Shown here in pieces: positions 3,825 through 26,763 of a stretch of DNA of 32,725 bases (position 1 is its first letter; each line of letters begins with the position of its first letter). The stretch covers positions 1-32,725 of the forward strand of contig DVGR01000102.1 in the NCBI GenBank assembly GCA_018712605.1, written 5' to 3'. The notes under the pieces were generated by a model. It made no database searches and was not told where the DNA came from. It worked only from the letters and a program-made list of their open reading frames with translations. The DNA comes from Candidatus Choladousia intestinigallinarum (GTDB lineage: Bacteria; Bacillota; Clostridia; Lachnospirales; Lachnospiraceae). The position numbers were made by a program, and so were the translations under genes.

Positions 3825-4010
3825 ATAAAAGCCCAGTCTCGGTGAACGGACAGAAGGGAGCACAAGTGCGACCTTCTGTCTGGGCACCAGAGACGCTAAC
3901 CCGTAGGAGCAAGGAGCACGGTAGTGCGGATTGCGAATACGGGTAGGATTGCGGGAGCACGCAGTGCGGAGCAATCCATGGCTTTTATGTGCGGCGCTCC
4001 CACGCATGAA
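3825..4010 (+). repeat. Structured dispersed repeat, copy A
   Basis: The element is bounded by ATAAAAGCC (3825-3833) and its inverted complement GGCTTTTAT (3980-3988), with a short hairpin tail to about 4010. Inside are successive stems: GTCTCGGTG (3836-3844) with CACCAGAGAC (3885-3894, one bulged A); ACAGAAGG with CCTTCTGT (3850-3857/3872-3879); ACCCGTA with TACGGGT (3899-3905/3938-3944), capped by GCAA-GGA-GCAC/GTGC-GGA-TTGC; and GGATTGC with GCAATCC (3946-3952/3971-3977), enclosing another GCAC/GTGC. It sits between the importer ATPase and binding protein genes, inside a minus-strand operon. The strand given is the orientation shared with copies B and C. No protein is encoded. Confidence 0.85.
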
Positions 4011-4014
4011 TTTT

Positions 4015-4989
4015 TTATAATCGTTTCAAATTATTTAATTCCCTGGTCTTATGGCATGCCACGTAATGATTTGGTCTTACCTCTTCATTTACAGGATTTT
4101 CTTTAAAGCACCTCTCTTCCGCATACGGGCAGCGGGAGGCAAACCTGCATCCCGGCTTAGGGTCAATGGGGGAAGTCAGCTCCCCTTTCAGTTCAATGCG
4201 CTTCCTTTCATGGTCAATGTCCGGCAGCGGCACTGCCGAAAGAAGAGCCTTGGTGTATGGATGCAGGCGGTGTTCAAAGAGCTCTTCCGTAGGCGCTTTC
4301 TCCACCATCTGCCCCAGATACATAACCAAAATTTCATCTGAAATGTACTTGACCACCGATAAATCATGGGTCACAAAAATATATGTAAGCTTTCTTTCAT
4401 CCCGGATATCGCACATAAGATTCAAAATCTGGGCCTGAATGGACACGTCCAATGCTGATACCGGTTCGTCGCATACGATAAACTTAGGATTCATTACAAG
4501 AGCCCTGGCGATCCCGATGCGCTGCCGCCGTCCTCCGTCCAACTCATGGGGATACGTATTTACCAGCCGATCGGCCAATCCCACAGTTTCCATAATGCCG
4601 TACACCTTATCCTCAATTTCCTGTGCCGTAAAATTCCCCATAATCCGCAGGGGTTCGGCTATAGACTGAAACAGGGACATTCTGGGATTCAGAGAAGAGA
4701 AAGGATCCTGAAAAATCATCTGCATATTCTTCCTGAGCTCCGTCAGCTTTTTCCTGTTTACATGGGTAATATCCTCTCCCTCAAAAAATATTTTTCCTGC
4801 GCTGCTTTCCAGAAGATGGATCAGCACACGCCCCAAAGTAGATTTTCCGCATCCTGATTCTCCTACGACTCCCAGAGTTTTTCCCGCATAAAGCTTAAAG
4901 CTGATATCATCCACTGCATGAACAAGCCCTGCCGGCACTGAAAAATATTTTTTCAGATTCTGTACTTCTAGAATTGGTTGTTCGTTCAT
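4015..4989 (-). CDS. Oligopeptide-type ABC importer ATPase (OppF/DppF-like)
   Basis: 324-residue ATP-binding subunit of the importer. It shows Walker A GESGCGKST (about 43-51), Q-loop QDPFSSLNP, a variant signature LDGGRRQR (about 150-157) in place of the usual LSGGQ, Walker B IVCDEP (about 171-176) and the switch His in FVTHD (about 208). The C-terminal oligopeptide-transporter extension has the cysteine pattern GCRFASRCPYAEERC plus a later Cys. The equivalent Cys set in Dpp ATPases has been reported to hold an iron-sulfur cluster (family knowledge). I chose ATG 4987-4989, which has AAAGGAG ahead of it and overlaps the stop of the preceding ATPase gene as ATGA, indicating translational coupling. 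A longer reading frame start at 5025 lacks support. Confidence 0.92.
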   Translation of the reverse strand: MNEQPILEVQNLKKYFSVPAGLVHAVDDISFKLYAGKTLGVVGESGCGKSTLGRVLIHLLESSAGKIFFEGEDITHVNRKKLTELRKNMQMIFQDPFSSLNPRMSLFQSIAEPLRIMGNFTAQEIEDKVYGIMETVGLADRLVNTYPHELDGGRRQRIGIARALVMNPKFIVCDEPVSALDVSIQAQILNLMCDIRDERKLTYIFVTHDLSVVKYISDEILVMYLGQMVEKAPTEELFEHRLHPYTKALLSAVPLPDIDHERKRIELKGELTSPIDPKPGCRFASRCPYAEERCFKENPVNEEVRPNHYVACHKTRELNNLKRL

Positions 4990-6017
4990 GTCTTGTCTCC
5001 TTTCATACAGCCGTGATGATGGCACTGTACAAAGTGTCCTTCTTCTACCTCCAAAAGCTTGGGCGGTTCACGGAAGCATTCTTCCGTGGCATAGGGGCAT
5101 CTGGGAGAAAAGTTGCATCCTTCCGGGAGATTTGCCGGATCAGGCATCAGTCCCCGGATGGGCTTCAGTCTCTTGCTGTCTCCCGCCGCATTTGGCAGTG
5201 AATCGAACAGTCCCTGAGTATAGGGATGCTCCGTTCTTTTGAAAATGTGAACCAGATTTCCCATCTCCACAATCTCTCCTGCGTAGACTACCGCCACCCT
5301 GTCGCACATCTCGGCGATAATCCCCAGATCATGGGTGATCATCAGCACGGATGTCCCCAGTTTATTCTTTATCTCATTCATCATGTCAAGAACCTGAGCC
5401 TGGATCGTCACATCCAAAGCTGTGGTGGGCTCATCCGCCAGGAGAAGCTCGGGGGAGCAGGCCAGGGCAATGGCTATAACGATCCGCTGCAGCATCCCCC
5501 CTGAAAACTGATGGGGAAATTCACTGTACCGTTCCCTGGGGATCCCTACCAGCTCCATCATTTCCGCCGCTTTTTGGGCGGCCTCCGCCTTTGAACAGTG
5601 ATCGTGAAGAAGAACCACCTCCGCAATCTGGTCTCCCACAGGATCTACCGGATTCAGCGCTGTCATGGGATCCTGAAAAATCATGGAGATTTCCGATCCC
5701 CGCACGGTACGCATCTGCTTCTCACTGATTTTATAAAGGTCTGTTCCCTTAAAGGTAATGGTACCTCCGATGATCTTCCCCGGAGGGTTGGGAATCAGCC
5801 GTATGATCCCCAACGCAATGGTGGTCTTTCCCGCTCCCGTCTCCCCCACAAGGCCCAGAGTTTCACCTTTTTTAAGTTCAAGCGACACATGGTTGACTGC
5901 TTTACAGACTCCCATATCCTTCGTGACATAGTGAATGGATAGATCCTTTATTTTCAGAAGTGTGTCTCCTTTTTTTAATTCTTCCCAGACGATCTCTTTT
6001 TTTGCCGTTCTGCCCAT
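4986..6017 (-). CDS. Oligopeptide-type ABC importer ATPase (OppD/DppD-like)
   Basis: 343 residues. Walker [10 protein letters not shown] lies at about 58-66, Q-loop QDPMTALNP follows, the signature FSGGMLQR is at about 171-178 and Walker B LLLADEP at about 191-197, then the usual [11 protein letters not shown] stretch. The C-terminal domain carries the cysteine-rich [14 protein letters not shown] segment and a final [10 protein letters not shown]. It pairs with the OppF-like ATPase to form the nucleotide-binding dimer of the importer. Start ATG 6015-6017 has AAGGAGG directly overlapping the upstream permease stop (gap of 13 nt), and the 3' end overlaps the next ATPase by ATGA. The order permease, permease, ATPase, ATPase is standard for Opp/Dpp operons. 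Confidence 0.93.
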
Positions 6018-6030
6018 ATATTTATCCTCC

Positions 6031-6906
6031 TTACTGCTTCAGCCGGGGATCCAAAGCGTCTCTAAGTCCGTCTCCCACCAGATTCAGCGCCAGCACCATG
6101 GCTGCGATACAGAGCCCCGGGCAGGTTACAAGGTATGGATATTTCATGATGTACTGGCGGCCGTCAGAAATCATGCTTCCCCATTCCGGCGTGGGCGGCG
6201 TTACTCCCAGTCCCAAAAAGCTCAGGGACGCCGCTGTCAGGATTGCGTTTGCCAGGATCAAAGTAATCTCCACAATAAGCTGCGAGGATACATTGGGAAG
6301 TATGTATTTAAAGATAATACGTATATCTGCGGCGTCCGTTGAACGTGCGGCCTCTACATACTGCTGCGCTTTTGCGGACAGGATGGGCCCCCGCATCATT
6401 CTGGCAAAAGCCGGAACTGAGGAAATGCCGATGGCCAAGATGGCATTTGGCAGCCCGCCTCCCATAACCGCCGATATGGCGATGGCCAGAAGGATACTTG
6501 GAATGGAATTTAAAATATCCATAAGACGCATAAGAACATTATCGATTTTTCCTCCGTAAAAAGCTGCCGCCGCACCGATTGCCGTGCCAAATACTGTGGC
6601 AAAAGCAGTCGCCACTACCCCTATGAGAAGCGATGTCCTTCCTCCATATAGCAGACGGACAAAGACACTCCTTCCCAGATTATCGGTTCCGCACAGATAT
6701 TGACTGCCGGGGGCTATAAATTTTTTAGTTATATCCTGCACATCATATCCTTCAGGAGCAATCACTCCGGCCAAAAGGCTCAGTACAACCATAACCAGAA
6801 TAATAACCAGGCCCGCCATCCCTGTGGGATTCCGTGAAAAACGGATCAGCGCTTCTCTCAGCAGGCTGCGCTGCTTGATCTTCTGCTTTGCGCCATTTTC
6901 GCTCAT
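6031..6906 (-). CDS. Oligopeptide-type ABC importer permease (OppC/DppC-like)
   Basis: 291-residue inner membrane subunit. The N-terminus has the OppC-type cytoplasmic lead (LLREALIRFSRNPTGMAGL) followed by the first membrane segment. The motif CGTDNLGRSVFVRLLYGGRTSL is characteristic of the DppC/OppC family (it is split here only in description). About five further membrane segments follow, and the EAA-type loop EAARSTDAADIRIIFKYILP contacts the ATPases. The start ATG overlaps the upstream permease stop as ATGA. The C-terminus DGLRDALDPRLKQ is typical of the family. Ligand specificity comes from the separate binding protein. Confidence 0.92.
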   Translation of the reverse strand: MSENGAKQKIKQRSLLREALIRFSRNPTGMAGLVIILVMVVLSLLAGVIAPEGYDVQDITKKFIAPGSQYLCGTDNLGRSVFVRLLYGGRTSLLIGVVATAFATVFGTAIGAAAAFYGGKIDNVLMRLMDILNSIPSILLAIAISAVMGGGLPNAILAIGISSVPAFARMMRGPILSAKAQQYVEAARSTDAADIRIIFKYILPNVSSQLIVEITLILANAILTAASLSFLGLGVTPPTPEWGSMISDGRQYIMKYPYLVTCPGLCIAAMVLALNLVGDGLRDALDPRLKQ

Positions 6907-7895
6907 GCCTGTTCTCCTCCCTTCTCCAGATCCGCAGCGGTGATTTTCCTTTTTCTGACCGCAGACGCTTTAAAAGTAGCCTTAATCCTGGGATCCACCG
7001 CAGCGTAGAGCAGATCAATCAAAAGATTGATGACGGAAACCGAAACTGCCGTCAAAATAATAGCGGCCCGAAGCTGGGGAAAATCCCGGTTGTTAATAGC
7101 TTCCACCATATAACGCCCCAAACCCGGTATAGCAAAAATCTGCTCAATAATCATTGTGCCACCAAGAGCCATGGCAAACTGCAGGCCCGCGCAGGTGATA
7201 ATGGGCACTAGGGCGTTTCCCATAATATGATGCAGCACTACTTTACTCTCTTTCTGGCCTTTGGCCCGGGCTGTCCTCACGAAATCCTGCTTCACATTGT
7301 CCAGCACTGCCGCCCGGACGTTCCGCATATAGCCTGCCGCTCCTAAGACACCTGTGGAGACGGCCGGCAGCACCCAGTAAGAGGGGCCGTACCATCCGGA
7401 AACTGGGAACCAGTGACGCTCCACCGCAAACCACAAAATCAAAAGCAGGGCGAACCAGAAACTTGGCATTGCCGCTCCTATCATAGCCAGAAAGCGTACA
7501 AATCCGTCTTTCCAGGTGTTCCGGTTCAAGGCGGCGTATGTACCCGCCAAAATCCCGATTGTGGCCGCAACCACCTGGGTAAGAATGGCCAGTACGAAGG
7601 TGGTGGGCCATCTGCTGAAAATTTCTGAAGTTACACTCTGGCCCGTTCGGTACGATTTTCCGAAGTCCCCCTCCGTAACCACACCTTTCAGAAATTTTCC
7701 GTACTGTATCAGCAGGGGATCATTGAGATTGTAGGTTTCTCTCCATTCGTATTTTTCCTCCTCCGACGCATCGGTCCCAAGCTGCAGTGCGGCCGGATCC
7801 CCTGGCGCCAGATACTGCAGGAAAAAAATCAGGAAGGTAACACATAGAATTACCGGGACAATCAAAAGCACCCGTTTCACCATATAACGAATCAT
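6903..7895 (-). CDS. Oligopeptide-type ABC importer permease (OppB/DppB-like)
   Basis: 330 residues from the start chosen here. The N-terminus MIRYMVKRVLLIVPVILCVT is the classical DppB first helix, followed by FLQYLAPGDPA and LNDPLLIQYGKFLKG. The EAA loop is recognisable at RTARAKGQKESKVVLHHIMG, and the C-terminus has IFAIPGLGRYMVEAINNRD. I chose ATG 7893-7895 because AAGGAGGAGG lies just ahead of it; a start further upstream at 7922 would place this SD inside the coding region as Lys-Arg-Arg-Arg-Lys. It is the first gene of the importer operon and faces the LysR gene divergently. Confidence 0.92.
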   Translation of the reverse strand: MIRYMVKRVLLIVPVILCVTFLIFFLQYLAPGDPAALQLGTDASEEEKYEWRETYNLNDPLLIQYGKFLKGVVTEGDFGKSYRTGQSVTSEIFSRWPTTFVLAILTQVVAATIGILAGTYAALNRNTWKDGFVRFLAMIGAAMPSFWFALLLILWFAVERHWFPVSGWYGPSYWVLPAVSTGVLGAAGYMRNVRAAVLDNVKQDFVRTARAKGQKESKVVLHHIMGNALVPIITCAGLQFAMALGGTMIIEQIFAIPGLGRYMVEAINNRDFPQLRAAIILTAVSVSVINLLIDLLYAAVDPRIKATFKASAVRKRKITAADLEKGGEQA

Positions 7896-7933
7896 TTTCC
7901 TCCTCCTTTTCATCAAATTCACTGCATTTTGTT

Positions 7934-7949
7934 AAGAAAATATTTTCTT
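7934..7949. promoter_or_regulatory. Perfect 16-bp palindrome in the importer operon leader
   Basis: AAGAAAATATTTTCTT is a perfect inverted repeat, 38 nt upstream of the importer permease start and far from the LysR start. It could be an operator for the importer operon. It is AT-rich, so chance is possible. I could not find a convincing -35/-10 pair for the operon itself. Confidence 0.4.
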
Positions 7950-8014
7950 TAGATGAAAACCTTCTAATTTTTCTTTTGATTTTCTTCCTTTTTTGTGAAA
8001 TCATGGTATCATTT

Positions 8015-8049
8015 TCTCATTGATAAGTGAAATGCAAAAATGCTATAAT
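8015..8049 (+). promoter_or_regulatory. LysR gene promoter with overlapping imperfect inverted repeat
   Basis: The -35 TTGATA (8020-8025), 18-nt spacer and -10 TATAAT (8044-8049) form a good promoter for the LysR gene at 8082. A TTTC...GAAA imperfect inverted repeat (8015-8034) overlaps the -35. LysR regulators commonly bind such dyads between divergent genes and repress themselves, so this is a candidate binding site. Confidence 0.6.
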
Positions 8050-8081
8050 TAATTCAAAATCCGTATTAAAGAGGCTCAAAA

Positions 8082-8981
8082 ATGACATTAAAACAAATAG
8101 AATGTTTCCTTCATTTATCCGAAAATCTTAATTTTGCAAGGACGGCTGACGAACTTTTTATCTCGCAGCCCGCTGTTTCCAGGGAGATTAAGGCTCTTGA
8201 GACAGAACTGGGCGTCACACTATTTATCCGAACGAAGAGAAGTGTCACTCTGACTCCAGCCGGAAGCTGTCTCAAAGTAGATTTAGGCTCTTTGTATTCC
8301 AGTATTAACGATGCTGTCACAAAAGCCCGCAATGCGCAGAAAAATTTCTATCAGCAGTTAAACTTTGGGTTCTGCCATACGGCCAGCTTGTTAAGGCTGC
8401 CCGAAGGATTAAAAGAATTTCACAAACTGCACCCGAATATTTATCTTCGCCCCGTGACGGGTGAACTTCGTTCCCTGAATGTAGATTTTCAGGCCGGCAA
8501 GCTGGATATCCTCTTTGGCATGAAGGATGGCCTAACCCCGCGACAGTCAGATGGTTATGACCTGATTTATAAAGGAAGGCTGTGCATCGTTGTTCCCGAG
8601 GGCCATGAGCTGTACCACCGCAATGCTCTCACTTTAGAAGATCTGGATGGCCATACCCTCCTGTCCATTGACAAACAGTACATGCCTCCCCTGATCGGAA
8701 AAGTTTTCCGGGAGATTCTTGCGGCCTGCCCTCATTCTGTTCTCGCCAATGTGCCCAATATTGAGGAAGCACGGATTTTACTGTTATCAGGCCTTGGCAT
8801 ATCCCTTGCGCCCCAGTATTCTTTTGCGCCCTCTTCTCATTACAAGATGATCCCTCTGGAACATCCTGCTTTAAATAACACGGATGTATTGGATTACTAT
8901 GTCTGCTATCACCAAAACGATAACCGGAAGCATATAAAAAGATTTATTTCCATCATAAAAGCCCTGCATGCGGATATGTAA
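8082..8981 (+). CDS. LysR-family transcriptional regulator
   Basis: 299 residues. The N-terminal winged helix-turn-helix (residues 1-60) is unmistakable: MTLKQIECFLHLSENLNFAR, then ADELFISQPAVSREIKALE and LFIRTKRSVTLTPAG. The C-terminal effector-binding domain (about 90-295) is of the type 2 periplasmic-binding fold and ends in a normal place. The gene is transcribed divergently from the Opp-type importer operon with a 186-nt shared intergenic region, so the most likely target is that operon together with the kinase. Its effector is unknown, possibly the imported solute or its phosphorylated form. The 3' end lies tail to tail with a metallo-hydrolase gene, only 3 nt apart. Confidence 0.93.
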   Translation: MTLKQIECFLHLSENLNFARTADELFISQPAVSREIKALETELGVTLFIRTKRSVTLTPAGSCLKVDLGSLYSSINDAVTKARNAQKNFYQQLNFGFCHTASLLRLPEGLKEFHKLHPNIYLRPVTGELRSLNVDFQAGKLDILFGMKDGLTPRQSDGYDLIYKGRLCIVVPEGHELYHRNALTLEDLDGHTLLSIDKQYMPPLIGKVFREILAACPHSVLANVPNIEEARILLLSGLGISLAPQYSFAPSSHYKMIPLEHPALNNTDVLDYYVCYHQNDNRKHIKRFISIIKALHADM

Positions 8982-8984
8982 TTC

Positions 8985-9785
8985 TTACGCCATAAGCTCC
9001 TTCAGCTCCTGGCAGTTATAGCAGAATCCACAGTATTCAGGATCTCCGAATCCTCTGCCTGTGGTGTACAGCATCAGAGAATTTCCCAGTTCCTCTCTTT
9101 CATACGTCCTTCCCTTTTCCGGAGAGAAGGATTCCAGCATGGCGATCATCTTATTGGTCCAGCTCCGTGGCATGGGCATTGGATGATGGCCTGCCAGAAA
9201 TTCCTGAAAATCGGTATCCAACAATTTTAGCAGGCTCTGCTTATAAATTCTAAAGGGAATTACTGGTTTTGCGCAGAACAGAAACACTCTCTGGCTTAAG
9301 GTATCTCCCGTGATCATCATCCTTGTTTTTTCATCATAGACGCAGACGCTTCCGGCTGTATGCCCCGGCGTGGATATGATTCTTACCCTTCTTTCCCCCA
9401 AATCCAACTCCCCTTCTTTCAGGAAATGCAGCCTTGTTCCATTCAGGGTAAGTTTTTCCTGGTTAAAAGTCGCATCAGGAAAAACCTCCCGGCACTGGCA
9501 CAGATCCTTTTCGTGCAGCCACAGATCCTCAAACTGCGCATATCCTCCCATATGATCCGGGTGAGCATGAGACACCATTGCTATTACAGGCACTTCCGTC
9601 AGCTCCCCCACATATTCCGCCAACTTATCATCCCCGTAACCATTATCGATCAGCAATGCCCTCTCCTTTCCCACGATCAGTGTAGCATATACATGACCAG
9701 GCCCTGGAACCAGGCCGGAACATTGAATGTGATAGATTCCGTCTCTGCAGTAAGTGTAAAACAATGCCTGCTCCACATCTTTCAT
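8985..9785 (-). CDS. Metallo-beta-lactamase-fold hydrolase
   Basis: 266 residues. The metal-binding motif is HAHPDH (residues 73-78), followed by the second-site His in STPGHTAG (142), the bridging Asp in ITGDT (161) and the final His in LAGHHP (200 or 201). This is the full zinc or iron ligand set of MBL-fold hydrolases. The family covers lactonases, glyoxalase II-like enzymes and phosphodiesterases, and I cannot choose among them. The C-terminus ends with a compact CGFCYNC cluster about 10 residues from the end, which is not part of the core fold and might bind a further metal. Start ATG 9783-9785 follows GGAGG. The gene stands alone, convergent with the LysR gene. Confidence 0.88.
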   Translation of the reverse strand: MKDVEQALFYTYCRDGIYHIQCSGLVPGPGHVYATLIVGKERALLIDNGYGDDKLAEYVGELTEVPVIAMVSHAHPDHMGGYAQFEDLWLHEKDLCQCREVFPDATFNQEKLTLNGTRLHFLKEGELDLGERRVRIISTPGHTAGSVCVYDEKTRMMITGDTLSQRVFLFCAKPVIPFRIYKQSLLKLLDTDFQEFLAGHHPMPMPRSWTNKMIAMLESFSPEKGRTYEREELGNSLMLYTTGRGFGDPEYCGFCYNCQELKELMA

Positions 9786-9804
9786 TAATCTTTTCCTCCT
9801 TCTT

Positions 9805-9833
9805 GCGGTATTTATCTTCTTTGTTTATACCGC
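9805..9833 (-). promoter_or_regulatory. Inverted repeat ahead of the metallo-hydrolase gene (operator candidate)
   Basis: GCGGTAT (9805-9811) and ATACCGC (9827-9833) form a perfect 7-bp inverted repeat with 15 nt between the arms, directly upstream of the SD. On the minus strand the distal arm overlaps TATAAA, a possible -10 element, so a repressor bound here could block transcription. Alternatively it is an RNA hairpin in the leader. Confidence 0.45.
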
Positions 9834-9906
9834 ACAAAAAAAGAAAAGTGAAATATCATTTACTCATCATTAATAAACAAAACGTATTAAAATCCACGCA
9901 TTGTCG

Positions 9907-10947
9907 CTATTGCTCTTTCTCCCCTCCCCCATAGATCTCTCTTGTAATCTCCATCACGGTCAGCAGCGTCACCGGCCCCAGGAACACTCCGGCAGGGCCG
10001 TACAGATACAGGCCGGCGTACACCACCACCACCATGACGAAGGGATAAACTCCCAGCTTGGCCCCGATCAGCCTGGGCTCCAGGTATTCCCGAACCACAT
10101 ACGTCAGAAGGAACAGACCGGCGTATCCTGCCGCCAGCTTATAATTTCCTCTGAATACCAGAAATACTGCCATGGGAACCAGGATCGTTCCCGTGCCTAC
10201 AAAGGGCAGGGCATCCAGAAGGCCAATGACGATCCCCAGCAGAAGAAAATAGGGATTTCCAAAGACCCACAGGCCGGCGGCGCACAGAACGGTGATGATC
10301 AGTATAAGAATCATCTGGGCTTTCAGGTACATTCCCCCCTGCTTCCACATCCTCTGGGTAATCCGGTGGAGGGCCTGATAGCTTTTGTACTTCTCCAGAC
10401 TGGCCCGCATCTTATCATAATCCCGCATCAGCAGCACCACGGACACGAACAGCATCAGCAGGAATATCCCGGCCTCCGCCAGCTTTTTCAAATAGCGCAC
10501 GGAATAGTTGACCACGCCGGGGATAATATAGATCCTGATCTGTTCCGTGGCGTGATCCAGGCTGGAATACACAAAGTCTTTCACGTCATCCGTGCTGACG
10601 CCAAAGCTTCGCTCCGCCAGGTAGCAGCACTGGTCGATGATTCCGCAGAAGCAGTCATAATAGTAATCAAAATTGGTGGCGATTTTCCGGATCTGCTCCG
10701 TAAGCATACAGGACAGATAGTAAAAAAGCAGCGTAAAAAGCCCCAGAAACAAGGCCATCAAAACACAGACAATGATTTCCTTCTTCCAGGGAAGCTTCGT
10801 TCTTATCTTCTCCGTCACTGGGTTCAGTACATGTACCAGGGCGTAGGCAATAAAAAAAGGAATCACATAGGGGAGCAGGTATTTCATTCCCAGAAACACC
10901 CCTAATGCAATTCCAATTATCGTAATTAATTTCTTTCCCTCTTCCAT
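9907..10947 (-). CDS. AI-2E family transporter (YtvI/PerM-like membrane protein)
   Basis: 346-residue polytopic membrane protein. Two helices lie near the N-terminus (ITIIGIALGVFLGMKYLLPY and VIPFFIAYALVHVLNP), then a helical segment at about 60-90, a soluble loop at about 90-160, and a C-terminal block of helices with the family motif LLDALPFVGTGTILVP and a final YGPAGVFLGPV near the end. The family includes the B. subtilis sporulation protein YtvI and Na+/H+ or autoinducer exporters; the name AI-2E should not be taken as proof of autoinducer export. It appears monocistronic. The start ATG 10945-10947 has only a weak upstream AAAGG. Confidence 0.88.
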   Translation of the reverse strand: MEEGKKLITIIGIALGVFLGMKYLLPYVIPFFIAYALVHVLNPVTEKIRTKLPWKKEIIVCVLMALFLGLFTLLFYYLSCMLTEQIRKIATNFDYYYDCFCGIIDQCCYLAERSFGVSTDDVKDFVYSSLDHATEQIRIYIIPGVVNYSVRYLKKLAEAGIFLLMLFVSVVLLMRDYDKMRASLEKYKSYQALHRITQRMWKQGGMYLKAQMILILIITVLCAAGLWVFGNPYFLLLGIVIGLLDALPFVGTGTILVPMAVFLVFRGNYKLAAGYAGLFLLTYVVREYLEPRLIGAKLGVYPFVMVVVVYAGLYLYGPAGVFLGPVTLLTVMEITREIYGGGEKEQ

Positions 10948-11024
10948 ACGTTCCCAGACCTTTCTTCTTTTTGGTATGGTATCTAGTATGGAAGGGGCAA
11001 ACTTGTTTTATTCTGAATCGGTAT

Positions 11025-11759: not shown

Positions 11760-11795
11760 CTGTCCGTCTTCCCTCTGAACTGTCTGTTACGAATT

Positions 11796-12428: not shown

Positions 12429-12460
12429 ACTATATCCTCTCTTTTCCTCTTTTTCTCCCT

Positions 12461-13264: not shown

Positions 13265-13400
13265 ACGATCACCCTTTGTTTATTCTGATTGGCGGGGGTG
13301 TACTGCGCTTTACAGAAATTCTCCCGGTACTTCCCCTGCTGCCGCCATTATAACGCATTCTCAAATTCTCTGCAACGGGTTTGCCTTTCCTCATTTTTTC

Positions 13401-13429: not shown

Positions 13430-13515
13430 TATAAAGTTAGAAGCGTCAGTAGATAAAACAGCAGGAAGCGCCTGAACAGCCTTTCTGCTGTCATAAAAAA
13501 TTATGAGGTGGGAAT

Positions 13516-14463: not shown

Positions 14464-14706
14464 ATAAAAGCCAGTCTCGGTGTACAGGCAGAGGACGCGC
14501 TTGTGCGGCTGTCTGCCTGGGCACCAGAGACGCTAACCTGTATGAGCAAGGAGCGCAAAGGCGCGGATTGCGAATACAGGTAGGGCGCTGCGTGCCAGTG
14601 GCACGCGTTTAGCGCCGACCGAAGCGGAGCGGAGACTTGCGGAAGCAGGAAGTGCGAAGCAATCCGTGGCTTTTATGCGTAGTGGTGCCTGCGCCAGCAG
14701 GCATGT
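14464..14706 (+). repeat. Structured dispersed repeat, copy B (with extra arm)
   Basis: The element is bounded by ATAAAAGCC (14464-14472) and GGCTTTTAT (14668-14676), plus a tail hairpin TGCCTGC-GCCA-GCAGGCA ending near 14704. It shares with copy A the blocks CAGTCTCGGTG, GGGCACCAGAGACGCTAAC, GAGCAAGGAGC, GCGGATTGCGAATAC and GCAATCC. Relative to copy A, stems carry paired changes: ACCTGTA/TACAGGT (14536-14542/14575-14581) and GCGC/GCGC in place of GCAC/GTGC. It has about 50 extra bases including a separate perfect hairpin GGCGCT/AGCGCC enclosing CGTGCC/GGCACG (14584-14616). The last 49 bases (14658-14706) are identical to copy C. It ends 12 nt before the GH2 gene's SD. Confidence 0.85.
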
Positions 14707-17535: not shown

Positions 17536-17540
17536 CCCGC

Positions 17541-20115: not shown

Positions 20116-20162
20116 CTTTTCATCTCCTCCCGCATACAACATCGGTTTGCTCCCATGAATAA

Positions 20163-20192
20163 GGAGGACCAGGGATTACCCCTGTGTCCTCC
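20163..20192 (-). terminator. Intergenic hairpin between binding protein and ATPase genes
   Basis: GGAGGAC/GTCCTCC with an inner CAGGG/CCCTG pair gives a 12-bp stem with one bulge. No strong U-run follows, so it is more likely a partial terminator or RNase barrier that keeps the binding protein mRNA more abundant than the membrane subunits. Confidence 0.55.
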
Positions 20193-20235
20193 CACTCCAT
20201 CTTATTTCACTTGTCTGTTACGGGCTAACTTCTAA

Positions 20236-21249
20236 TTAATACTGAGCCTCAACGATCTCGTCTGTTACAACGGTCATTTCCATCTCGGTTCCGTCTACGG
20301 TGATGCTGGGAACTGTATCGTCATATACGAACCAGTGCTCTTCCATGTATACTTCTTTCTCGGGCTCCTCGCCAGCCTCAAGCTGCTGGATAACTTCCTC
20401 TACGAAGGGAGCTGCCAGAGGATTGCACTCGAAGTCAGCGTTGATGTCGCCTGCCTGTACATACTGAAGTCCAGCGGTGCAAGCGTCGAAGGAAATCAGG
20501 ATTACATCGCCGTCTACGCCGTAGGAAACGCCTGCTGCTGTCATAGCGTCCATAGCGCCGAATGCTTCGTTATCGTTCTGGCAAACCACTACGTTAAACT
20601 GTCCTTCATAGCTCTTGCAGTAGGACTCCATAACTTCCTGGCCGCCGTCCTGTGTGAAGTCACCAGTCTGGGAATCCAGGATGGTCCATCCATACTTGTC
20701 AGCGATTTCCTTGAATCCTTCTGTACGTCCGATGGTAGCGGATGCTCCTGTGGAGCCCTCGATTACCAGGATGTTCAGCTCTTCGATACCCTTTGCGTCT
20801 GCGTAAGCCTTCAGCCATTCGCCGGCTGCAAGACCCTCTGTCTTAAAGTTTGATCCTACCCATGATACGTATTTGTCAGAATCATCAATGGTACGGTCGA
20901 TTACGATAACGGGAATACCCGCATCCTCACACTCTGTAAGAACGGTGTCCCATCCGGTGGATACGATGGGGTCGATGATGATGTAGTCTACATCCTGCTC
21001 GATGAAGTTACGTACTGCCTCAAGCTGAACGGCTGAGTCATTGTCACAGTCTACGAATACCAGCTCATAGCCGTTCTCAGCGGTAAACACGTCCTGGCAG
21101 GACTGGGTGGAAGCGGTACGCCAGTCAGACTCATGTCCAACCTGTGCAAATCCCACAGTGATCAGATCTTCCTCAGCAGATACGGTCATAGCTCCTGCAA
21201 CGGTCATAGCTGCCAGTGCTGCGCCTGCCAATAACACTCTTTTCTTCAT
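20236..21249 (-). CDS. Sugar ABC importer substrate-binding protein (YtfQ-like)
   Basis: 337 residues. A Sec signal peptide (MKKRVLLAGAALAAMTVAGA) is followed by a likely signal peptidase I site, VSA before EED; there is no lipobox Cys. The mature protein is a periplasmic-binding protein type 1 fold: VGFAQVGHESDWRTAST, YIIIDPIVSTGWD, IPVIVIDRTID and NVVVCQNDNEAFGAMDAM are typical of the YtfQ galactofuranose-binding group. That specificity is family-based and not proven here. ATG 21247-21249 has AAGGAGG at good spacing. It heads the importer operon and follows its sensor genes after a 163-nt gap. No good -35 is visible, consistent with activator dependence. Confidence 0.9.
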   Translation of the reverse strand: MKKRVLLAGAALAAMTVAGAMTVSAEEDLITVGFAQVGHESDWRTASTQSCQDVFTAENGYELVFVDCDNDSAVQLEAVRNFIEQDVDYIIIDPIVSTGWDTVLTECEDAGIPVIVIDRTIDDSDKYVSWVGSNFKTEGLAAGEWLKAYADAKGIEELNILVIEGSTGASATIGRTEGFKEIADKYGWTILDSQTGDFTQDGGQEVMESYCKSYEGQFNVVVCQNDNEAFGAMDAMTAAGVSYGVDGDVILISFDACTAGLQYVQAGDINADFECNPLAAPFVEEVIQQLEAGEEPEKEVYMEEHWFVYDDTVPSITVDGTEMEMTVVTDEIVEAQY

Positions 21250-21336
21250 AAAAAAATCCTCCTTTTTTCCGCCCCTTTCGGGCCTCTTCGTTTCTGATGG
21301 CATTATTTTATCATCCATCTTTCAGGAAAAATACGG

Positions 21337-21354
21337 AAAACCTTCTCAGGTTTT
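21337..21354 (-). terminator. Hairpin after the sensor lipoprotein gene
   Basis: AAAACCT-GAGA-AGGTTTT on the minus strand, a 7-bp stem whose 3' arm ends in T-rich sequence, 59 nt after the lipoprotein stop. It would separate the sensor operon from the importer operon, although it is short and AT-rich. Confidence 0.4.
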
Positions 21355-21412
21355 TAGTAATTCTTCCACCTTGCACAGAAAAAAGTAGGATTTCTTCAGA
21401 TTTTTGTTAGAT

Positions 21413-22426
21413 TTAGTACATTCTTTCCTGACGGTTGGCCGCCGCATTCTCCGGCGTAAAAATCTGCTCCTCCACATAGTAAGCTTTCTCAATGGTCTCG
21501 CCGGCCTCCAGCTTTTTAATCAGCTCTGACAGCAGAGGGCCCTGGATAGGATTGCACTCATGGTCCGCATTGATTTTTCCCTCTTCCATCAGGTCAAAGG
21601 CCGCGGACACCGCATCAAAGGACAGCACCGTGATCTCTCCCTCCGTGCCGTATGTCCTGCCGTCCTCATCCATGGCTTCCAAGGCCCCAAAGGTCATATC
21701 GTCATTCTGGCTTACCAGTACGTCAATGTCCGCATACCGATCCAAGAATGCTTCCATTACCTCCCGCCCCTTGGCGGTGGTAAATTCTCCCGTCTCTTTC
21801 GCAAGAATGTTCCAGTTGGGATGCTGGGAGGCGATCTCTTCAAATCCTTCCGTCCTGCCGATCTCCGCAGAAGAGCCCAGGGTTCCCTGGAGGATTACGA
21901 TATTGATTTCCTCGTTTTCTCTTCCCTGTTCCTCCAGATACGTTTCCAGCCACTGCCCCATGGCGGTTCCCTCCGCCTTGAAATCCGATCCTACCCAGGC
22001 CGTATACAGGGACTCGTCTTCCACGTCCACCTCCCTGTCCGCCACCAGCACGGGAATGTCGGCATCTTTGGCCTCCTGCAGGACGCTGTCCCATCCCGTC
22101 TCCACCACAGGGGACAGCAAGATATAATCCACCTCCTGGAGAATAAAGTTCCGCACAGCCTTTAACTGATTCTCCTGCCTCTGCCGTCCATTGTCAAAGA
22201 CAAGAGTGTAGCCGTTCTCTTCCGTAAAAGCCTCCTCTATGGATTTCGTATAAGCGCTTCTCCAGTCAGATTCTGAACCAAGCTGTGAAAAGCCGACCAC
22301 AATGGAATCACCCTGCGCCTGCGGGGTCTCTGTCTGCAATTCTTCTTTCCTGCCGCAGCCGGAAGCTCCCGCCGCCGCAAAAAACAGCCCTGTTAAAAGC
22401 AGTCCTTTCCCATCGATCCTTATCAT
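21413..22426 (-). CDS. Sugar-binding lipoprotein, probable sensor component of the adjacent two-component system
   Basis: 337 residues. The N-terminal signal ends in a lipobox-type GASGC (Cys 24), so it is probably lipid-anchored outside the cell. The body is a type 1 periplasmic-binding fold and is clearly a paralogue of the importer's binding protein: VGFSQLGSESDWRSAYTKS, TGWDSVL, WVGSDFKAEGTAMGQWL and IGRTEGFEEIA all have close counterparts there. It is encoded 28 nt after the histidine kinase gene and in the same operon. A binding protein in such a place is known from three-component sugar sensors such as XylFII with LytS in Clostridium, so I infer it reports sugar to the kinase. It could instead be a second importer binding protein. 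Confidence 0.85.
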   Translation of the reverse strand: MIRIDGKGLLLTGLFFAAAGASGCGRKEELQTETPQAQGDSIVVGFSQLGSESDWRSAYTKSIEEAFTEENGYTLVFDNGRQRQENQLKAVRNFILQEVDYILLSPVVETGWDSVLQEAKDADIPVLVADREVDVEDESLYTAWVGSDFKAEGTAMGQWLETYLEEQGRENEEINIVILQGTLGSSAEIGRTEGFEEIASQHPNWNILAKETGEFTTAKGREVMEAFLDRYADIDVLVSQNDDMTFGALEAMDEDGRTYGTEGEITVLSFDAVSAAFDLMEEGKINADHECNPIQGPLLSELIKKLEAGETIEKAYYVEEQIFTPENAAANRQERMY

Positions 22427-22454
22427 ACCTTTTCCAGCACTCCTTCCATTTCCT

Positions 22455-23936
22455 CTATAACACCTCTGAACGGCGGACCTCCTGAGCAGGAATCTCGATG
22501 GTCACCCGGGTACCCTCCCCCGGGGCGCTGTCCAGCCAAAGTCCGTAGGCATCCCCATAATTCAGACGGATGCGCTGGAATACATTGGCGATTCCAAATC
22601 CGCTGTCATTTTCATCGTCCGCCTTATAGAGACCTTTTTTGACCCTGTTCAGTTCTTCCTGGCTCATTCCTACCCCATCGTCCGCAACAGTCAGACGGAT
22701 CTTATCCCCCTGCCGCAGGCCCTGCACCAGAATTTTCCCCATTCCCCGTTTAGGCTTAATCCCGTGATAAATAGAATTTTCCACCAGGGGCTGAAGAGTC
22801 ATCTTCAGAATCCGGCAGTCATAGATATCCGGGTCTATACGGATCTCATACTCCAAAATATCCCCGTAGCGGAACTGCTGGATCTTCAGATAGCTCTGGA
22901 TGTGTCTCTCTTCCTCCCGGATAGAGATAAAATCCCTTCCCTTGCTCAAAAGAATCCTGAAGAATTCCGAGAGCGCCACCACCATATCCATGGCTTCCTG
23001 GTTCTTTCCTCCCTCGATCAGCCAAATAATGGTGTCCAAGGTATTGTACAGAAAATGAGGATTAATCTGAGCCTGAAGAAGCTTCAGCTCCATATTTTTG
23101 AGATTCTGCTGCTCCTGCTGGATTCTCTCTACCAGAGATTCCAGATCCTCCGTCATGTGATTAAAACTCTCTGCCAGAAGCTGGACCTCATCCTGGGTCC
23201 TGCAGTCCGCCCGGACGCTGAAGTTCCCCTTCGCCACCTGATCCGCCACCCCGGCAAGCTGCCGCACCGGCTTGGTGACGCTGTGGGTCACCCACAGATT
23301 CAGCCCTATCGCCACCGTACTGACCAGGATCAAAGCCAGAATCCCCACGGTGATGGAGCCTCCCACCTGATCGTCCAGCTCCTGCCGGACCCTCTCCATG
23401 TTGGCGGATTCATAATATATATAATACTGAATTTCCTCCTGGAGAAGATCCGTCAACTGATAAATATTGGACTCCAGCATGTAAATATTCTCGTCGTAGT
23501 TTCCGCCCTCCTGAATGCTGTCCCGGATCTTGTCCACATTTTTTTCCAGCAGATCCAGGTTGGTCATCAGCCTCTCCAGCCAGGACTTGCTCTCCCCCTC
23601 TGCCGTATCGTACAGACTGGTAAATCCCTCCCTGGCATTTTCAATGAGGGTATAGGGATTCGTCAGCCCATCCCGCTCCCCGATGGTGTCAAAGGTAATG
23701 GAGCTGACCACCAGCTTGTACATGCTCTCATCCATTTCTTCCTTAAAATTCAGGTTATAGTCGTTGGCCGCCGTGATATTGCGGATATTCTGGTCATAGG
23801 CATCCGTAAAACGCATCAGGATCAAGCTCTGGTACACGGAAAGAAGGATCATGGGAATGATGATCACCAGTGAAATCGACACCAGCTTATATTTCAGGGG
23901 AACCTTCACCATATCTCCGTCCCTTTTTCTTCTCAT
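22455..23936 (-). CDS. YesM-type sensor histidine kinase
   Basis: 493 residues. A first membrane segment (about 15-35) is followed by an extracellular region (about 36-190) and a second membrane segment (about 190-215), then a HAMP domain (SVTKPVRQLAGVADQVAKGN). The kinase core is of the LytS/YesM His_kinase family: the phosphoacceptor His 294 lies in QINPHFLYNT, with LVENSIYHGIKPK and the ATP-binding DDGVGMS and GFGIANVFQRI in the C-terminal domain. The start ATG overlaps the response regulator stop as ATGA. It most likely senses a sugar through the lipoprotein encoded next to it and phosphorylates the partner regulator. Confidence 0.92.
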   Translation of the reverse strand: MRRKRDGDMVKVPLKYKLVSISLVIIIPMILLSVYQSLILMRFTDAYDQNIRNITAANDYNLNFKEEMDESMYKLVVSSITFDTIGERDGLTNPYTLIENAREGFTSLYDTAEGESKSWLERLMTNLDLLEKNVDKIRDSIQEGGNYDENIYMLESNIYQLTDLLQEEIQYYIYYESANMERVRQELDDQVGGSITVGILALILVSTVAIGLNLWVTHSVTKPVRQLAGVADQVAKGNFSVRADCRTQDEVQLLAESFNHMTEDLESLVERIQQEQQNLKNMELKLLQAQINPHFLYNTLDTIIWLIEGGKNQEAMDMVVALSEFFRILLSKGRDFISIREEERHIQSYLKIQQFRYGDILEYEIRIDPDIYDCRILKMTLQPLVENSIYHGIKPKRGMGKILVQGLRQGDKIRLTVADDGVGMSQEELNRVKKGLYKADDENDSGFGIANVFQRIRLNYGDAYGLWLDSAPGEGTRVTIEIPAQEVRRSEVL

Positions 23937-25555
23937 TCTTTCATCCCCTTCATTCTGTATTCCTTAGGCGTGCAGTTCTGAGTTTTCTTAAAAATGTAGC
24001 TGAAATAATGGGAATCCTGGTAGCCCGCCAGCTCTCCGATCTCCGTAATCTTTTTATTCGTACAGCGCAGAAGCTCTTTGGCCAGCTTCATCCTGGTCCC
24101 AGTCAGATATTCCGTAAAGGTCTGCCCTGTCTCCTGGGCAAAAATAGAGCTGAAGTAATTGGTACTTATGTTTACAGTGGAGGCCACCTTGTTCAGATTC
24201 AGGTCGCTCTCCTGGCAGTGCTTCTGGATATATTCTTTGGCATCCCTGATCAGCCTGCCGTACCTGCGGTTATTCACATGGTTTCTCAGTTCCATAGATT
24301 TTCCAAACAGACGGATCATAAATTCCCGCATGGCCTCCCTGGATGCAATGCGCCCGATCTCTTCATTCAGCCCGCCGCATACCTTCATCACCTCTTCCTC
24401 CGAGTTTCCGATGCTTCTCTGAAACCGAAGCACACAGAGATAGCTGTGCATGGTCACGTAATGACAGAAAATCATAGAGCTGATATTTTGATCGCCGTAG
24501 GCGCTCAGATAACCGTCAACAAAATTCTCTACCTCTTCCTCAATGCCGTTTCGCAGGAAGTTCTCAATGATATGAGCATCGATTTTCTCCATATCCATTC
24601 CATTTACATCGAAGGTCCCAGTACTCTCCCGTTCCAGACTCTTGTAGAGAAGAATCTGATCCGGCTTCTCGAAATACCGGAAAGAGAGAGCCTTATTGGC
24701 GTCATTGTAAGACCATTTCAGATCCCTGAGCCGGTACACAATCCGTCCGATCCCTCCGAAAAAGTGGATCTCCCCTCCTGCCGCCTTTCGAACAGTCTCC
24801 GCAAGTTCATGGCACAGTCCGTCCAGCCGCTCCTTCAGCTCTTCCTCGCTGTCCCCTCTGACTATAAAAAACCAGCCGTCAATTTCCCGCTCAAAAGCTT
24901 CTATCTTATCCAGCTTCTGAATATAGGAGAGAAGATCTTCCTCCGCCTGCACCATCTTATCTGTATACTCCGGGGCCGCATCCGTAAAGAGAAGCTGGAA
25001 CAGTACCGTCTGGTAAATGGGTGCCCCCAGCTCAATCCCCAGCTTCTTTCCCTTCTCTAAAAGCTCGGCTACAGAGAAATGCCCGCTGATCAAATCCCGG
25101 AACAGTTCCGTCCTTGCCTTCCTGCTGTCCTTGTCCATCTCCTGCCGGTACCGTTCCAGAAGCTGCTGCTCCTGGCGCTCCTTCTCAATGTTCTGCGCCA
25201 CGCCCCGCACCACCTCCAAAAGCTTGGAAGCCTTGAAAGGCTTAAGGAGATACTCCGTGACCCCCAGGTCAATGGCCTTCTGGGCGTATTCAAATTCCCG
25301 GTAGCCGCTGATAATAATAATCTTCAGGCCAGGCAGATCCTTCCGCAGAAGACGGCTCAGCTCCAGCCCGTCCATAAAGGGCATACGGATATCCGTGATC
25401 AGAATATCCGGCTTTTCCTTCAAAATGGCCGGATAAGCCATCTCCCCGTCGCTGGCGCATCCCACGAAGGAAAGCCCCTCCTTCTCCCAGTCCACGTTAT
25501 TACGGATTCCCTCCCGGATTACAATCTCGTCTTCTACCAAAAAAATCTTCAGCAT
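23933..25555 (-). CDS. YesN-type response regulator with AraC DNA-binding domain
   Basis: 540 residues. A receiver domain occupies about 1-120, with acidic pocket VEDE and the phosphoacceptor Asp 55 in ILITDIRMPFMDG. A long middle domain (about 150-400) has a GGDEF-like degenerate fold. The C-terminus (about 435-535) is a pair of AraC helix-turn-helices with LNKVASTVNISTNYFSSIF, GQTFTEYLTGTRM and AGYQDSHYFSYIFKK. It is the first gene of the sensor operon. The likely target is the sugar importer operon starting at 21249, whose promoter lacks a good -35, as expected for an activator-dependent gene. That target is inference from position. Confidence 0.92.
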   Translation of the reverse strand: MLKIFLVEDEIVIREGIRNNVDWEKEGLSFVGCASDGEMAYPAILKEKPDILITDIRMPFMDGLELSRLLRKDLPGLKIIIISGYREFEYAQKAIDLGVTEYLLKPFKASKLLEVVRGVAQNIEKERQEQQLLERYRQEMDKDSRKARTELFRDLISGHFSVAELLEKGKKLGIELGAPIYQTVLFQLLFTDAAPEYTDKMVQAEEDLLSYIQKLDKIEAFEREIDGWFFIVRGDSEEELKERLDGLCHELAETVRKAAGGEIHFFGGIGRIVYRLRDLKWSYNDANKALSFRYFEKPDQILLYKSLERESTGTFDVNGMDMEKIDAHIIENFLRNGIEEEVENFVDGYLSAYGDQNISSMIFCHYVTMHSYLCVLRFQRSIGNSEEEVMKVCGGLNEEIGRIASREAMREFMIRLFGKSMELRNHVNNRRYGRLIRDAKEYIQKHCQESDLNLNKVASTVNISTNYFSSIFAQETGQTFTEYLTGTRMKLAKELLRCTNKKITEIGELAGYQDSHYFSYIFKKTQNCTPKEYRMKGMKE

Positions 25556-25611
25556 TTTGCTGTGCCTCCGTCAGTAATTTCTATCTCTCATCTGATATAT
25601 GAACTATTAAT

Positions 25612-25640
25612 ATTTTAGCTATAATAATCCCAAATGTAAA
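25612..25640 (-). promoter_or_regulatory. Promoter of the response regulator/sensor operon
   Basis: Minus strand -35 TTTACA (25635-25640), 17-nt spacer and -10 TAAAAT (25612-25617). This is close to consensus and suggests constitutive expression of the sensor genes. Confidence 0.65.
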
Positions 25641-25678
25641 TAAAAACTTTTAAAACGGGGCTGCTGCCGCAGCCCCGT
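25641..25678 (-). terminator. Terminator of the YARHG protein gene
   Basis: A perfect 10-bp GC-rich stem, ACGGGGCTGC/GCAGCCCCGT (25655-25678), with a TGCC-sized loop, is followed on the minus strand by TTTTAAAAGTTTTT. It is 48 nt past the stop codon. Confidence 0.88.
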
Positions 25679-25726
25679 CCTCCTAATAAAACCTTTAATT
25701 TTTTTACAAACCCTTATCATCTCTGG

Positions 25727-26548
25727 TCAGCTGATCTTATTCATATACTCCACCATCAGGTTAATATTAGCCGACTCATACTGATTCATCACCCGGGTAT
25801 CAAAATCCTCCGCCTCTACATACCCATCATACCAGGACTTGGAATCAAAATACGCCTGTACCTCTTTCAGGACGAATTTTCGATGATGGCGGGCGTAAAT
25901 CTCATTAATAGCCATCTGGACCTGATCCGCCGACATGCCGGAAAGATCCGATTCATCCAGATACTCCGTGGAGCTCTGGGGCAGAATATAATCTGAAGAG
26001 GAAGAGATAGCCGCCCCTCCCTCAGATGCGGAAGCCCCGCTGATCTGAATATTGTCCAGTACCCACGAAACGTCTCCGCTCATATCCGAAAATTCTGCCA
26101 TCACTGCATCATCATCGTAGTACCCCTGAACATCTGTGGGGGTCGTGGCGTAGTAGATCCCGTCCGCCCCGTTCCCCAGTGTCTCAAAGCTGGGCAGATC
26201 CAGATAATCCAGCTCCTGGGTGTAGCAGATGCTGAAAAGATTCCCGCCGTTCGCAAAACCCAGCTCCTGGGTCCACAGCTCCCTGGAATCAATATGGAAG
26301 AAATCCACAGAGTCCGCATTGATACTCATGGCGCAGTTCCCGGCCCAGGAAGCCGGCAGCGTCACATCCACCTCAGAAAAACTAATGGTAATATTTCCTT
26401 CAGAATCTTTCCCTGTAGTATAATCCCAGCGGTTCCCCTCCTGGGCTCCTGCCGCAAATCCAAGGCTAGCTGCCAGACACAGGGACGCCGCAGCCGCCAA
26501 ACTGGCTTTTAAACATCTTCTCTTCATAGTCCCCCATTCCTTTCTCAT
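25727..26548 (-). CDS. Secreted protein with a C-terminal YARHG domain
   Basis: 273 residues from ATG 26546-26548, which has AGGAG ahead of it. The N-terminus is a signal peptide (KASLAAAASLCLAASLGFAA, cleavage after GAQ or AGA). Residues about 40-180 are a beta-rich region with an unrecognised fold, containing ITISFSEVDVTLPASWAG. After an Ala/Ser-rich linker (GASASEGGAAISSSS), the C-terminal 70 residues form a YARHG domain: MAINEIYARHHRKF, then YFDSKSWYDGY. This domain is common on the surface of Clostridia, and its role is unknown. The gene is alone, with a strong hairpin in its 5' leader. Confidence 0.75.
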   Translation of the reverse strand: MRKEWGTMKRRCLKASLAAAASLCLAASLGFAAGAQEGNRWDYTTGKDSEGNITISFSEVDVTLPASWAGNCAMSINADSVDFFHIDSRELWTQELGFANGGNLFSICYTQELDYLDLPSFETLGNGADGIYYATTPTDVQGYYDDDAVMAEFSDMSGDVSWVLDNIQISGASASEGGAAISSSSDYILPQSSTEYLDESDLSGMSADQVQMAINEIYARHHRKFVLKEVQAYFDSKSWYDGYVEAEDFDTRVMNQYESANINLMVEYMNKIS

Positions 26549-26565
26549 GTTTATCTCCTGCTCCA

Positions 26566-26599
26566 AGAATACAGCAAAGGTTCCCTTGCTCCGTATTCT
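26566..26599 (-). promoter_or_regulatory. Hairpin in the 5' leader of the YARHG protein gene
   Basis: AGAATAC/GTATTCT enclose AGCAAAGG/CCTTGCT around a small loop, ending just before the SD. It could control translation or mRNA stability. It is not a terminator as there is no U-run. Confidence 0.5.
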
Positions 26600-26706
26600 C
26601 CCTCCCCCCTGGGGAAAGGTTTAAGAATATCTATGTTTATTTTACAATATTTCCTGGCAAAAGAAATGAATGTATTCTTAAAAAACACAATGAAAAATAG
26701 AAAAGG

Positions 26707-26763
26707 CAGTGCGGAGCAATCCGTGGCTTTTATGCGTAGTGGTGCCTGCGCCAGCAGGCATGT
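26707..26763 (+). repeat. Structured dispersed repeat, copy C (3' fragment)
   Basis: GCAGTGCGGAGCAATCC matches copy A at 3961-3977 and the last 49 bases (26715-26763) are identical to copy B (14658-14706), including TGGCTTTTAT and the tail hairpin. The 5' two thirds of the element are missing. It lies between the end of a CobW gene (26768) and the leader of the YARHG gene. Confidence 0.85.

What the first reader, a model, noticed from the sequence alone, without database searches (positions are those of the whole stretch)
3825..26763. Dispersed structured element with terminal inverted repeats, three copies in 23 kb
The same non-coding element occurs at 3825-4010, 14464-14706 and, as a 3' fragment, 26707-26763. 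Full copies begin ATAAAAGCC and end GGCTTTTAT, and share CAGTCTCGGTG, GGGCACCAGAGACGCTAAC, GAGCAAGGAGC, GCGGATTGCGAATAC and GCAATCC. All copies have the same orientation. No protein or transposase accompanies them. It may be a MITE-like mobile element, a BIME-like repeat or a repeated structured RNA. I do not recognise it as a described family.
Basis: partly seen in the sequence, partly recalled or inferred. Interest (0 to 1): 0.85.

Follow-up and report, generated by a model that had tools for sequence, protein, structure and literature searches.

The report
Clostridiales-1 RNA is a mobile repeat
The repeat is a known but unexplained RNA family, Clostridiales-1, and comparison of related gut-bacterial genomes shows that the family behaves as a small jumping DNA element with a conserved folded core.

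Summary
In detail: two full copies (3825-4010, 14464-14706) and a 3' fragment (about 26705-26763). The family is described: both full copies match Rfam RF01699, Clostridiales-1 (100.2 and 69.2 bits, cut-off 48). Its source paper lists it as a probable RNA, probably not cis-regulatory (passages). The window's genome has 48 matches over the cut-off; 130 of 299 genomes of its family have at least one.

New here: the family is a MITE-like mobile DNA element. In genome G271, copies start GATnnCAGGGTCAAAAG and end CTTTTGACCCCAACATC, an imperfect terminal inverted repeat. A script recognised the right end in 29 of 66 copies; 22 of 29 have perfect 7- or 8-bp flanking duplications (mismatched flanks: 1.35% and 0.12%). 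Of 50 copies from 41 genomes, 23 have one, against 21 of 2426 control pairs. One site is empty in 5 of 5 congeners. Covariation of the core is strong (30 of 36 pairs).

For the window's own subfamily the support is presence/absence at thrS (2 of 30 loci); its duplication is unsettled. No transposase was found. Closest analogue: bcr1 of Bacillus cereus.

The parts
3825..4010 (+). Copy 1, subfamily A: RF01699 core (3827-3986) plus 3' hairpin (about 3989-4009)
   Evidence: 100.2 bits; 3' extension by comparison of copies
3825..3833 (+). ATAAAAGCC, 5' arm of the closing stem P1 of copy 1
   Evidence: pairing in the Rfam alignment
3980..3988 (+). GGCTTTTAT, 3' arm of P1 of copy 1
14464..14706 (+). 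Copy 2, subfamily A with extra module: RF01699 core (14466-14674) plus 3' hairpin
   Evidence: 69.2 bits; comparison
14464..14472 (+). ATAAAAGCC, 5' arm of P1 of copy 2
14585..14640 (+). Extra module (approximate limits) before the last core hairpin; present in copy 2, absent in copy 1
   Evidence: same module in several other copies
14668..14676 (+). GGCTTTTAT, 3' arm of P1 of copy 2
14680..14706 (+). 3' terminal hairpin of copy 2 (TGCCTGC gcca GCAGGCA stem)
   Evidence: shared with the 3' fragment and many copies
26705..26763 (+). Copy 3: 3' fragment (end of the last core hairpin, 3' arm of P1, terminal hairpin)
   Evidence: DNA match 26704-26763 at 97%

Best explanation
The element belongs to Clostridiales-1 (RF01699), and that family is a non-autonomous transposable DNA element (MITE-like) of Lachnospiraceae. 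A typical copy is about 184 bp: a left end GATnnCAGGGTCAAAAG, a folded core closed by stem P1 with three inner hairpins, and a right end that is itself a hairpin and ends CTTTTGACCCCAACATC. The two ends are inverted repeats of each other. A transposase supplied in trans, not identified here, is inferred to act on the ends and insert the element into A+T-rich DNA with a staggered cut that leaves a 7-8 bp duplication. Shown: ends, duplications, empty sites, high and variable copy number, conserved pairing. Inferred: a DDE-type transposase, action in trans, and that pairing is kept because the folded strand (RNA, or single-stranded DNA) helps the source element persist or move. The window copies are a subfamily (A) with altered ends, usually next to TTTACT or TTTAT; they are inferred to be mobile in the same way.
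For: Rfam match of both window copies. G271: 22 of 29 copies with recognised right end have a perfect 7- or 8-bp duplication, control 1.35% and 0.12% (37 of 66 copies were dropped for lack of a recognised right end). 50 copies from 41 genomes: 23 exact-junction duplications against 21 of 2426 control pairs. TIR-like ends in G271: 172 against 9 for the reversed pattern. Empty site between two V/A-type ATPase subunit genes in 5 of 5 congeners. Subfamily A present at thrS in 2 of 30 loci. Subfamily B in the window's genome: 7-bp repeat by eye in 4 of 8 copies. Covariation.
Against: No transposase or autonomous partner was found, though the searches were partial. 27 of 50 copies show no exact duplication. 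For the window's subfamily A the flanks do not prove a duplication: of 14 copies with both flanks readable, 7 have TTTACT on both sides, but the motif is nearly fixed and at least 4 copies have unequal flanks. The strong conservation of the core is more than a plain MITE needs.
Confidence: 0.82

Rival explanations
1. A functional non-coding RNA gene family, as Rfam files it, multiplied by ordinary duplication and kept for a regulatory role at each site.
For: Strong covariation; Rfam type Gene; sRNA; listed as a probable RNA by its discoverers.
Against: Target-site duplications and empty sites; truncated copies and short derivatives that keep both ends; no fixed gene context in G271 (convergent 18, both genes co-oriented with the element 15, both opposed 8, divergent 7, inside a predicted ORF 7, undetermined 11, of 66).
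Confidence: 0.08
2. A REP/BIME-like or IS200/IS605-derived repeat moved by a Y1 transposase, with TTTAC(T) as target for subfamily A.
For: Hairpins at the ends; nearly fixed TTTACT left of subfamily A (19 of 25 copies) and a right end GTTTACT in 9 of 15; unequal flanks in some copies.
Against: No Y1_Tnp in the 86.8% complete own genome; the G271-type copies make 7-8 bp duplications, which this class does not make (recalled); no strand bias, 35 of 66 leading-oriented (origin assumed at base 1).
Confidence: 0.04
3. Retrotransposition of a structured RNA by a reverse transcriptase (for example of a group II intron).
For: Structured core; two lengths of duplication; subfamily A often lies after a T-tract, a habit recalled for group IIC introns.
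Against: Matched inverted repeats at both ends and a narrow duplication length suit a DNA transposase. Reverse transcriptases were not searched for.
Confidence: 0.03
4. Mobile element as above, but the two-sided changes of the stems come from correction of imperfect palindromes during replication and not from selection on a folded strand.
For: Few G-U pairs: 27 of 1501 paired cells against 8 of 133 in tRNA acceptor stems, a small control.
Against: Conserved unpaired positions in the inner loops; within G271 one-sided changes are common (43 G-U, 51 broken, against 111 two-sided), so correction is not fast.
Confidence: 0.15

Closest known systems
Clostridiales-1 RNA motif, Rfam RF01699 (Weinberg et al. 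2010, PMC2864571; passages seen)
   Same: Both full window copies match the whole model over its cut-off.
   Different: The entry is typed Gene; sRNA. The outer ends, the right-end hairpin, the target-site duplications and the mobility found here lie outside the model and were not found described in the papers searched.
bcr1 and other bcr repeats of the Bacillus cereus group (passages of PMC3446304, PMC6542083 and PMC2267715 seen; the original bcr1 paper was not held)
   Same: Short intergenic, structured, MITE-like repeats in tens of copies, often part of UTRs, no own transposase, a TTTAT motif tied to movement.
   Different: Described for another bacterial group; sequences not compared here. 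The G271-type elements have variable 7-8 bp duplications and clear inverted repeats.
Bacterial MITEs
   Same: Short, non-coding, terminal inverted repeats, target-site duplication, shorter derivatives that keep both ends.
   Different: A conserved structured core shared across a bacterial family, and no parent insertion sequence found.
REP/BIME elements with RAYT
   Same: Dispersed intergenic palindromes in many copies.
   Different: No Y1 transposase found in the own genome; target-site duplications in the family.

Membership tests
Clostridiales-1 (RF01699) | Covariance-model score over the gathering cut-off along the whole model | tested here: met
   100.2 and 69.2 bits against 48, model 1-166; copy 3 is a fragment and was not matched
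MITE | Short element without a transposase gene | tested here: met
   Typical copy 184 bp in G271 (1076646-1076829); no transposase beside the window copies among the ORFs checked
MITE | Terminal inverted repeats | tested here: met
   GATnnCAGGGTCAAAAG / CTTTTGACCCCAACATC in G271 and most of the other genomes printed. Not shown for the outer ends of subfamily A
MITE | Target-site duplication, family level | tested here: met
   22 of 29 in G271; 23 of 50 across 41 genomes, control 21 of 2426
MITE | Target-site duplication, window subfamily A | tested here: inconclusive
   TTTACT on both sides in 7 of 14 copies with both flanks readable; unequal flanks in others
MITE | Parent autonomous element with the same ends | tested here: inconclusive
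   None found in the sequence and families searched; about one third of G271 was scanned and other transposase families were not searched
REP/BIME with RAYT or IS200/IS605 derivative | Y1 transposase in the genome | tested here: not met
   PF01797: 0 matches in the 86.8% complete own genome; control genomes rang in 5 of 14
REP/BIME with RAYT or IS200/IS605 derivative | Insertion without target-site duplication | tested here: not met
   Duplications in G271 and other genomes; open for subfamily A
bcr1 repeats | Sequence homology to bcr1 | not tested
   bcr1 sequence not at hand; original paper not held
Group II intron or other retroelement | Associated reverse transcriptase, intron structure | not tested
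   No reverse-transcriptase search was made; Rfam at gathering level gave no intron in the window

The most novel reading that the evidence does not exclude
Clostridiales-1 is a transposon whose folded core, as RNA or as single-stranded DNA, takes part in its own movement, for instance as cofactor or guide of a transposase encoded elsewhere. That would explain why a protein-free element keeps an intricate paired core with few G-U pairs (27 of 1501 paired cells) across many genomes while single copies decay.
Probability: 0.12. Interest if true: 0.88.

Novelty: new variant of a known kind. Interest (0 to 1): 0.62.

Why it matters
A curated sRNA family of unknown function, over its cut-off in 130 of 299 genomes of one bacterial family, is better read as a mobile DNA element. 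Genome annotation that uses Rfam will report its copies as RNA genes. The result moves the search for function to mobility and to effects on neighbours such as thrS, shows that covariation alone does not tell an RNA gene from a structured transposon, and sets a clear target: the missing transposase and the role of the conserved fold.

Tried and rejected
Autonomous partner. Of the 172 TIR-like ends counted in G271, only the first 100 places were listed. Thirty-five regions around listed ends, mostly ends without a recognised copy, were fetched and read: truncated copies, probable chance matches and six short derivatives (about 64-101 bp) that keep both ends, five of them with a perfect 7- or 8-bp duplication by eye (L245, L250, L251, L256, first element of L271) and one with 7 of 8 (L249). 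PF01609 (15 matches in 4 of 7 genomes, none in G271) and PF00872 (6 matches in 3 of 7, one in G271) loci had no convincing pair of ends; one perfect end at L510 belongs to a neighbouring copy. Plasmids: no match. Phage records: 4 partial matches, not followed.

Weak script. Searches used a best-match option that misses sites. One search repeated the pair search with a plain mismatch count over the first 1.2 of 3.52 Mb of G271 and the other loci held: no end pair 450-5000 bp apart carried a 7- or 8-bp duplication.

Exact empty site for the window copies: not obtained. After purC no element was seen by eye in up to 150 bases in 16 congener loci (L317 held only 49), but the next genes differ. For copy 1 no close flank was recognised in the genus search.

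Lagging-strand preference: 35 of 66 copies in G271 lie in leading orientation; GC skew is positive over the 1.2 Mb seen; origin assumed at base 1.

G-U scarcity: 1.8% of paired cells against 6.0% in acceptor stems of 19 tRNAs, 133 pairs. The control is small and phylogeny is not accounted for; a hint only.

Literature. 'Clostridiales-1 RNA', 'RF01699', 'Clostridiales-1' with Rfam, MITE with Lachnospiraceae and target site duplication, MITE with structured RNA and Rfam: no paper listed describes mobility of this family. One search was too broad to inform (15 of 4161 listed). Supplements could not be read, and most subscription papers are not held.
Full report
What was checked. A DNA search of the window's genome (G000, 2.97 Mb in 279 contigs, 86.8% complete) with copy 1 gives 63 matches. 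Rfam identifies both full copies as RF01699, Clostridiales-1, over the whole model. The model finds 61 matches in that genome at E <= 0.001, 48 of them over the gathering score. The neighbouring genes of the window copies are a solute-binding protein and an ABC transporter ATPase (copy 1), and SAICAR synthetase (purC) and a family 2 glycosyl hydrolase (copy 2).

Subfamilies. Reading the flanks shows at least four kinds of copy in this genome, named here by the closing stem: A (ATAAAAGCC/GGCTTTTAT, the window copies), B (TGATGCC/GGCATCA), C (TAAGTCC/GGACTTA, often tandem) and D (GGATTAC/GTAATCC). The two arms change together. Beyond the Rfam model A and B have a further 3' hairpin. Copies of A occur with or without an extra module of about 55-60 bases; copy 2 of the window has it.

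Distribution. Of 299 genomes of the same family, 130 have a match over the cut-off and 161 one at E <= 0.001; none of 14 control genomes has one (at most nine candidates per genome were scored, so copy numbers there are lower bounds). Single-contig genome G271 has at least 66 copies over the cut-off (150 of 177 candidates scored).

Ends and duplications. The 66 G271 copies gave the limits of the element by eye: GATACCAGGGTCAAAAGG at the left, CTTTTGACCCCAACATC at the right, an imperfect inverted repeat. A script recognised the right end in 29 of 66; the other 37 were dropped, among them tandem and truncated copies and at least one (L196) with an evident repeat by eye. Of the 29, 15 have a perfect 7-bp and 7 a perfect 8-bp direct repeat of the flanks; pairing flanks of different copies gives 1.35% and 0.12%. 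In 50 copies from 41 genomes (and search loci), 28 have the left 7-mer within 90 bases to the right, against 115 of 2426 pairs from different genomes. With the exact junction required it is 23 of 50 against 21 of 2426, in 18 of 41 genomes. In the window's own genome 4 of 8 main subfamily B copies (L062, L065, L067, L068) show a 7-bp repeat by eye. These are insertion footprints.

Empty sites. The G271 copy at 1076646-1076829 lies between genes for V/A-type ATPase subunits (ATP-synt_ab with the V/A C-terminal domain, and subunit D). The five other genomes of its genus have the same gene pair with 28-43 bases between the aligned parts and no RF01699 match there. For subfamily A, a copy at C237 sits between a T-box-like leader (motif recognised from memory; Rfam T-box passed its cut-off in only 2 of the 30 loci, not in the own one) and thrS (tRNA-synt_2b, tRNA_SAD and TGS domains). 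Sister genome G322 has the same insertion; G325, 83% identical in the gene part, has 42 bases instead. Of 30 loci examined, one per genome, 2 contain RF01699 (own and G322) and 28 do not. Forty-seven genomes were searched and 46 matched; the 16 matched genomes without a locus were not examined. So the window's subfamily also varies in presence between species, although loss is not formally excluded.

The window copies themselves. In one search, 19 of 25 subfamily A copies have TTTACT just left of the element, often after a hairpin and T-tract (by eye; no control made). Of 15 with a recognised right end, 9 continue GTTTACT and one is cut by its contig end; of the 14 others, 7 have TTTACT on both sides. 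Unequal flanks occur (L042, L077, L078, L080, L038). Copy 1 has TTTATT at its left and TTTTTTAT just right of its hairpin; copy 2 has GTACT and a nearby ATACT. This may be a duplication at a strongly preferred site or a fixed right end; it is not settled. Three copies (L008, L026, L047) run on into a palindrome TTTACTCT...AGAGTAAA, and G325 and G152 have a similar hairpin after the thrS leader, so subfamily A may insert into the foot of another repeat.

Structure. An alignment of 44 cores (four subfamily members of the own genome and one copy from each of 40 other genomes) has a consensus of 36 pairs, 30 with changes on both sides; 97.2% of cells pair, against 30.9-42.6% when the partners are slid, and none of 500 shuffles reached any of the five measures. 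The structure was predicted from the same alignment, which favours it, and the window row is misaligned at its 5' end. Only 27 of 1501 paired cells are G-U. Within G271, 47 of 48 core-length copies were compared with their consensus: stems differ at 6.4% of sites and loops at 9.6%, with 111 two-sided Watson-Crick changes, 43 one-sided G-U, 51 one-sided broken and 6 two-sided broken pairs. The reading that single copies decay while source lineages keep the pairing is inference. Correction of imperfect palindromes is not excluded.

Mechanism. Terminal inverted repeats with a 7-8 bp duplication point to a DDE-type transposase acting in trans (general knowledge of such enzymes). It was not found: no Y1_Tnp in the own genome; no PF01609 and one PF00872 in G271, without matching ends; no end pair with a duplication and room for a gene in the first 1.2 Mb of G271 or the other loci held. 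Short derivatives of about 64-101 bp keep both ends, five of six with a perfect duplication by eye. Either they moved as such, so that the core is not needed, or they lost the core after insertion.

Comparison. By description the closest known elements are the bcr repeats of the Bacillus cereus group: MITE-like, structured, often within transcribed UTRs, with a TTTAT motif (passages of PMC3446304 and PMC6542083). The Rfam 12 paper warns that MITEs may confound microRNA annotation in eukaryotes (passages). No paper listed describes Clostridiales-1 as mobile; supplements were not readable.

Verdict. Its nature as a mobile element is well supported for the family and probable for the window copies. 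The transposase and the purpose of the fold remain open.

Noticed in passing
L072 (G000:C237:30296-30455, minus strand): A subfamily A copy sits between a T-box-like leader terminator and the thrS genes, so it would be transcribed whenever the leader reads through.
   Followed up: partly
L200:1202-1252 (G271 1076646-1076696): The insertion replaces the C-terminal tail of a V/A-type ATPase subunit: the ORF runs 16 codons into the element and stops there.
   Followed up: partly
L008, L026, L047 (own genome), just right of the element: A separate palindromic repeat TTTACTCT...AGAGTAAA followed by AAGCTCCGCATGG-like sequence; similar hairpins follow the thrS leader in G325 and G152.
   Followed up: partly
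L245, L249, L250, L251, L256, L271 (G271): Short derivatives of about 64-101 bp that keep both ends of the element but little or none of the core.
   Followed up: partly
L083, L085/L090, L071, L079 (own genome); L192, L204, L212, L219, L227 (G271): Tandem arrays of two or more cores.
   Followed up: no
L242, L247, L254 and other orphan ends in G271: Truncated copies that keep only the left end lie just upstream of apparent gene starts.
   Followed up: no
MT835932.1, MT835871.1, MT838256.1, MT838939.1 (phage records, human faeces): Partial matches to the G271 element (27-74% of the query, 72-85% identity) in unannotated phage records.
   Followed up: no
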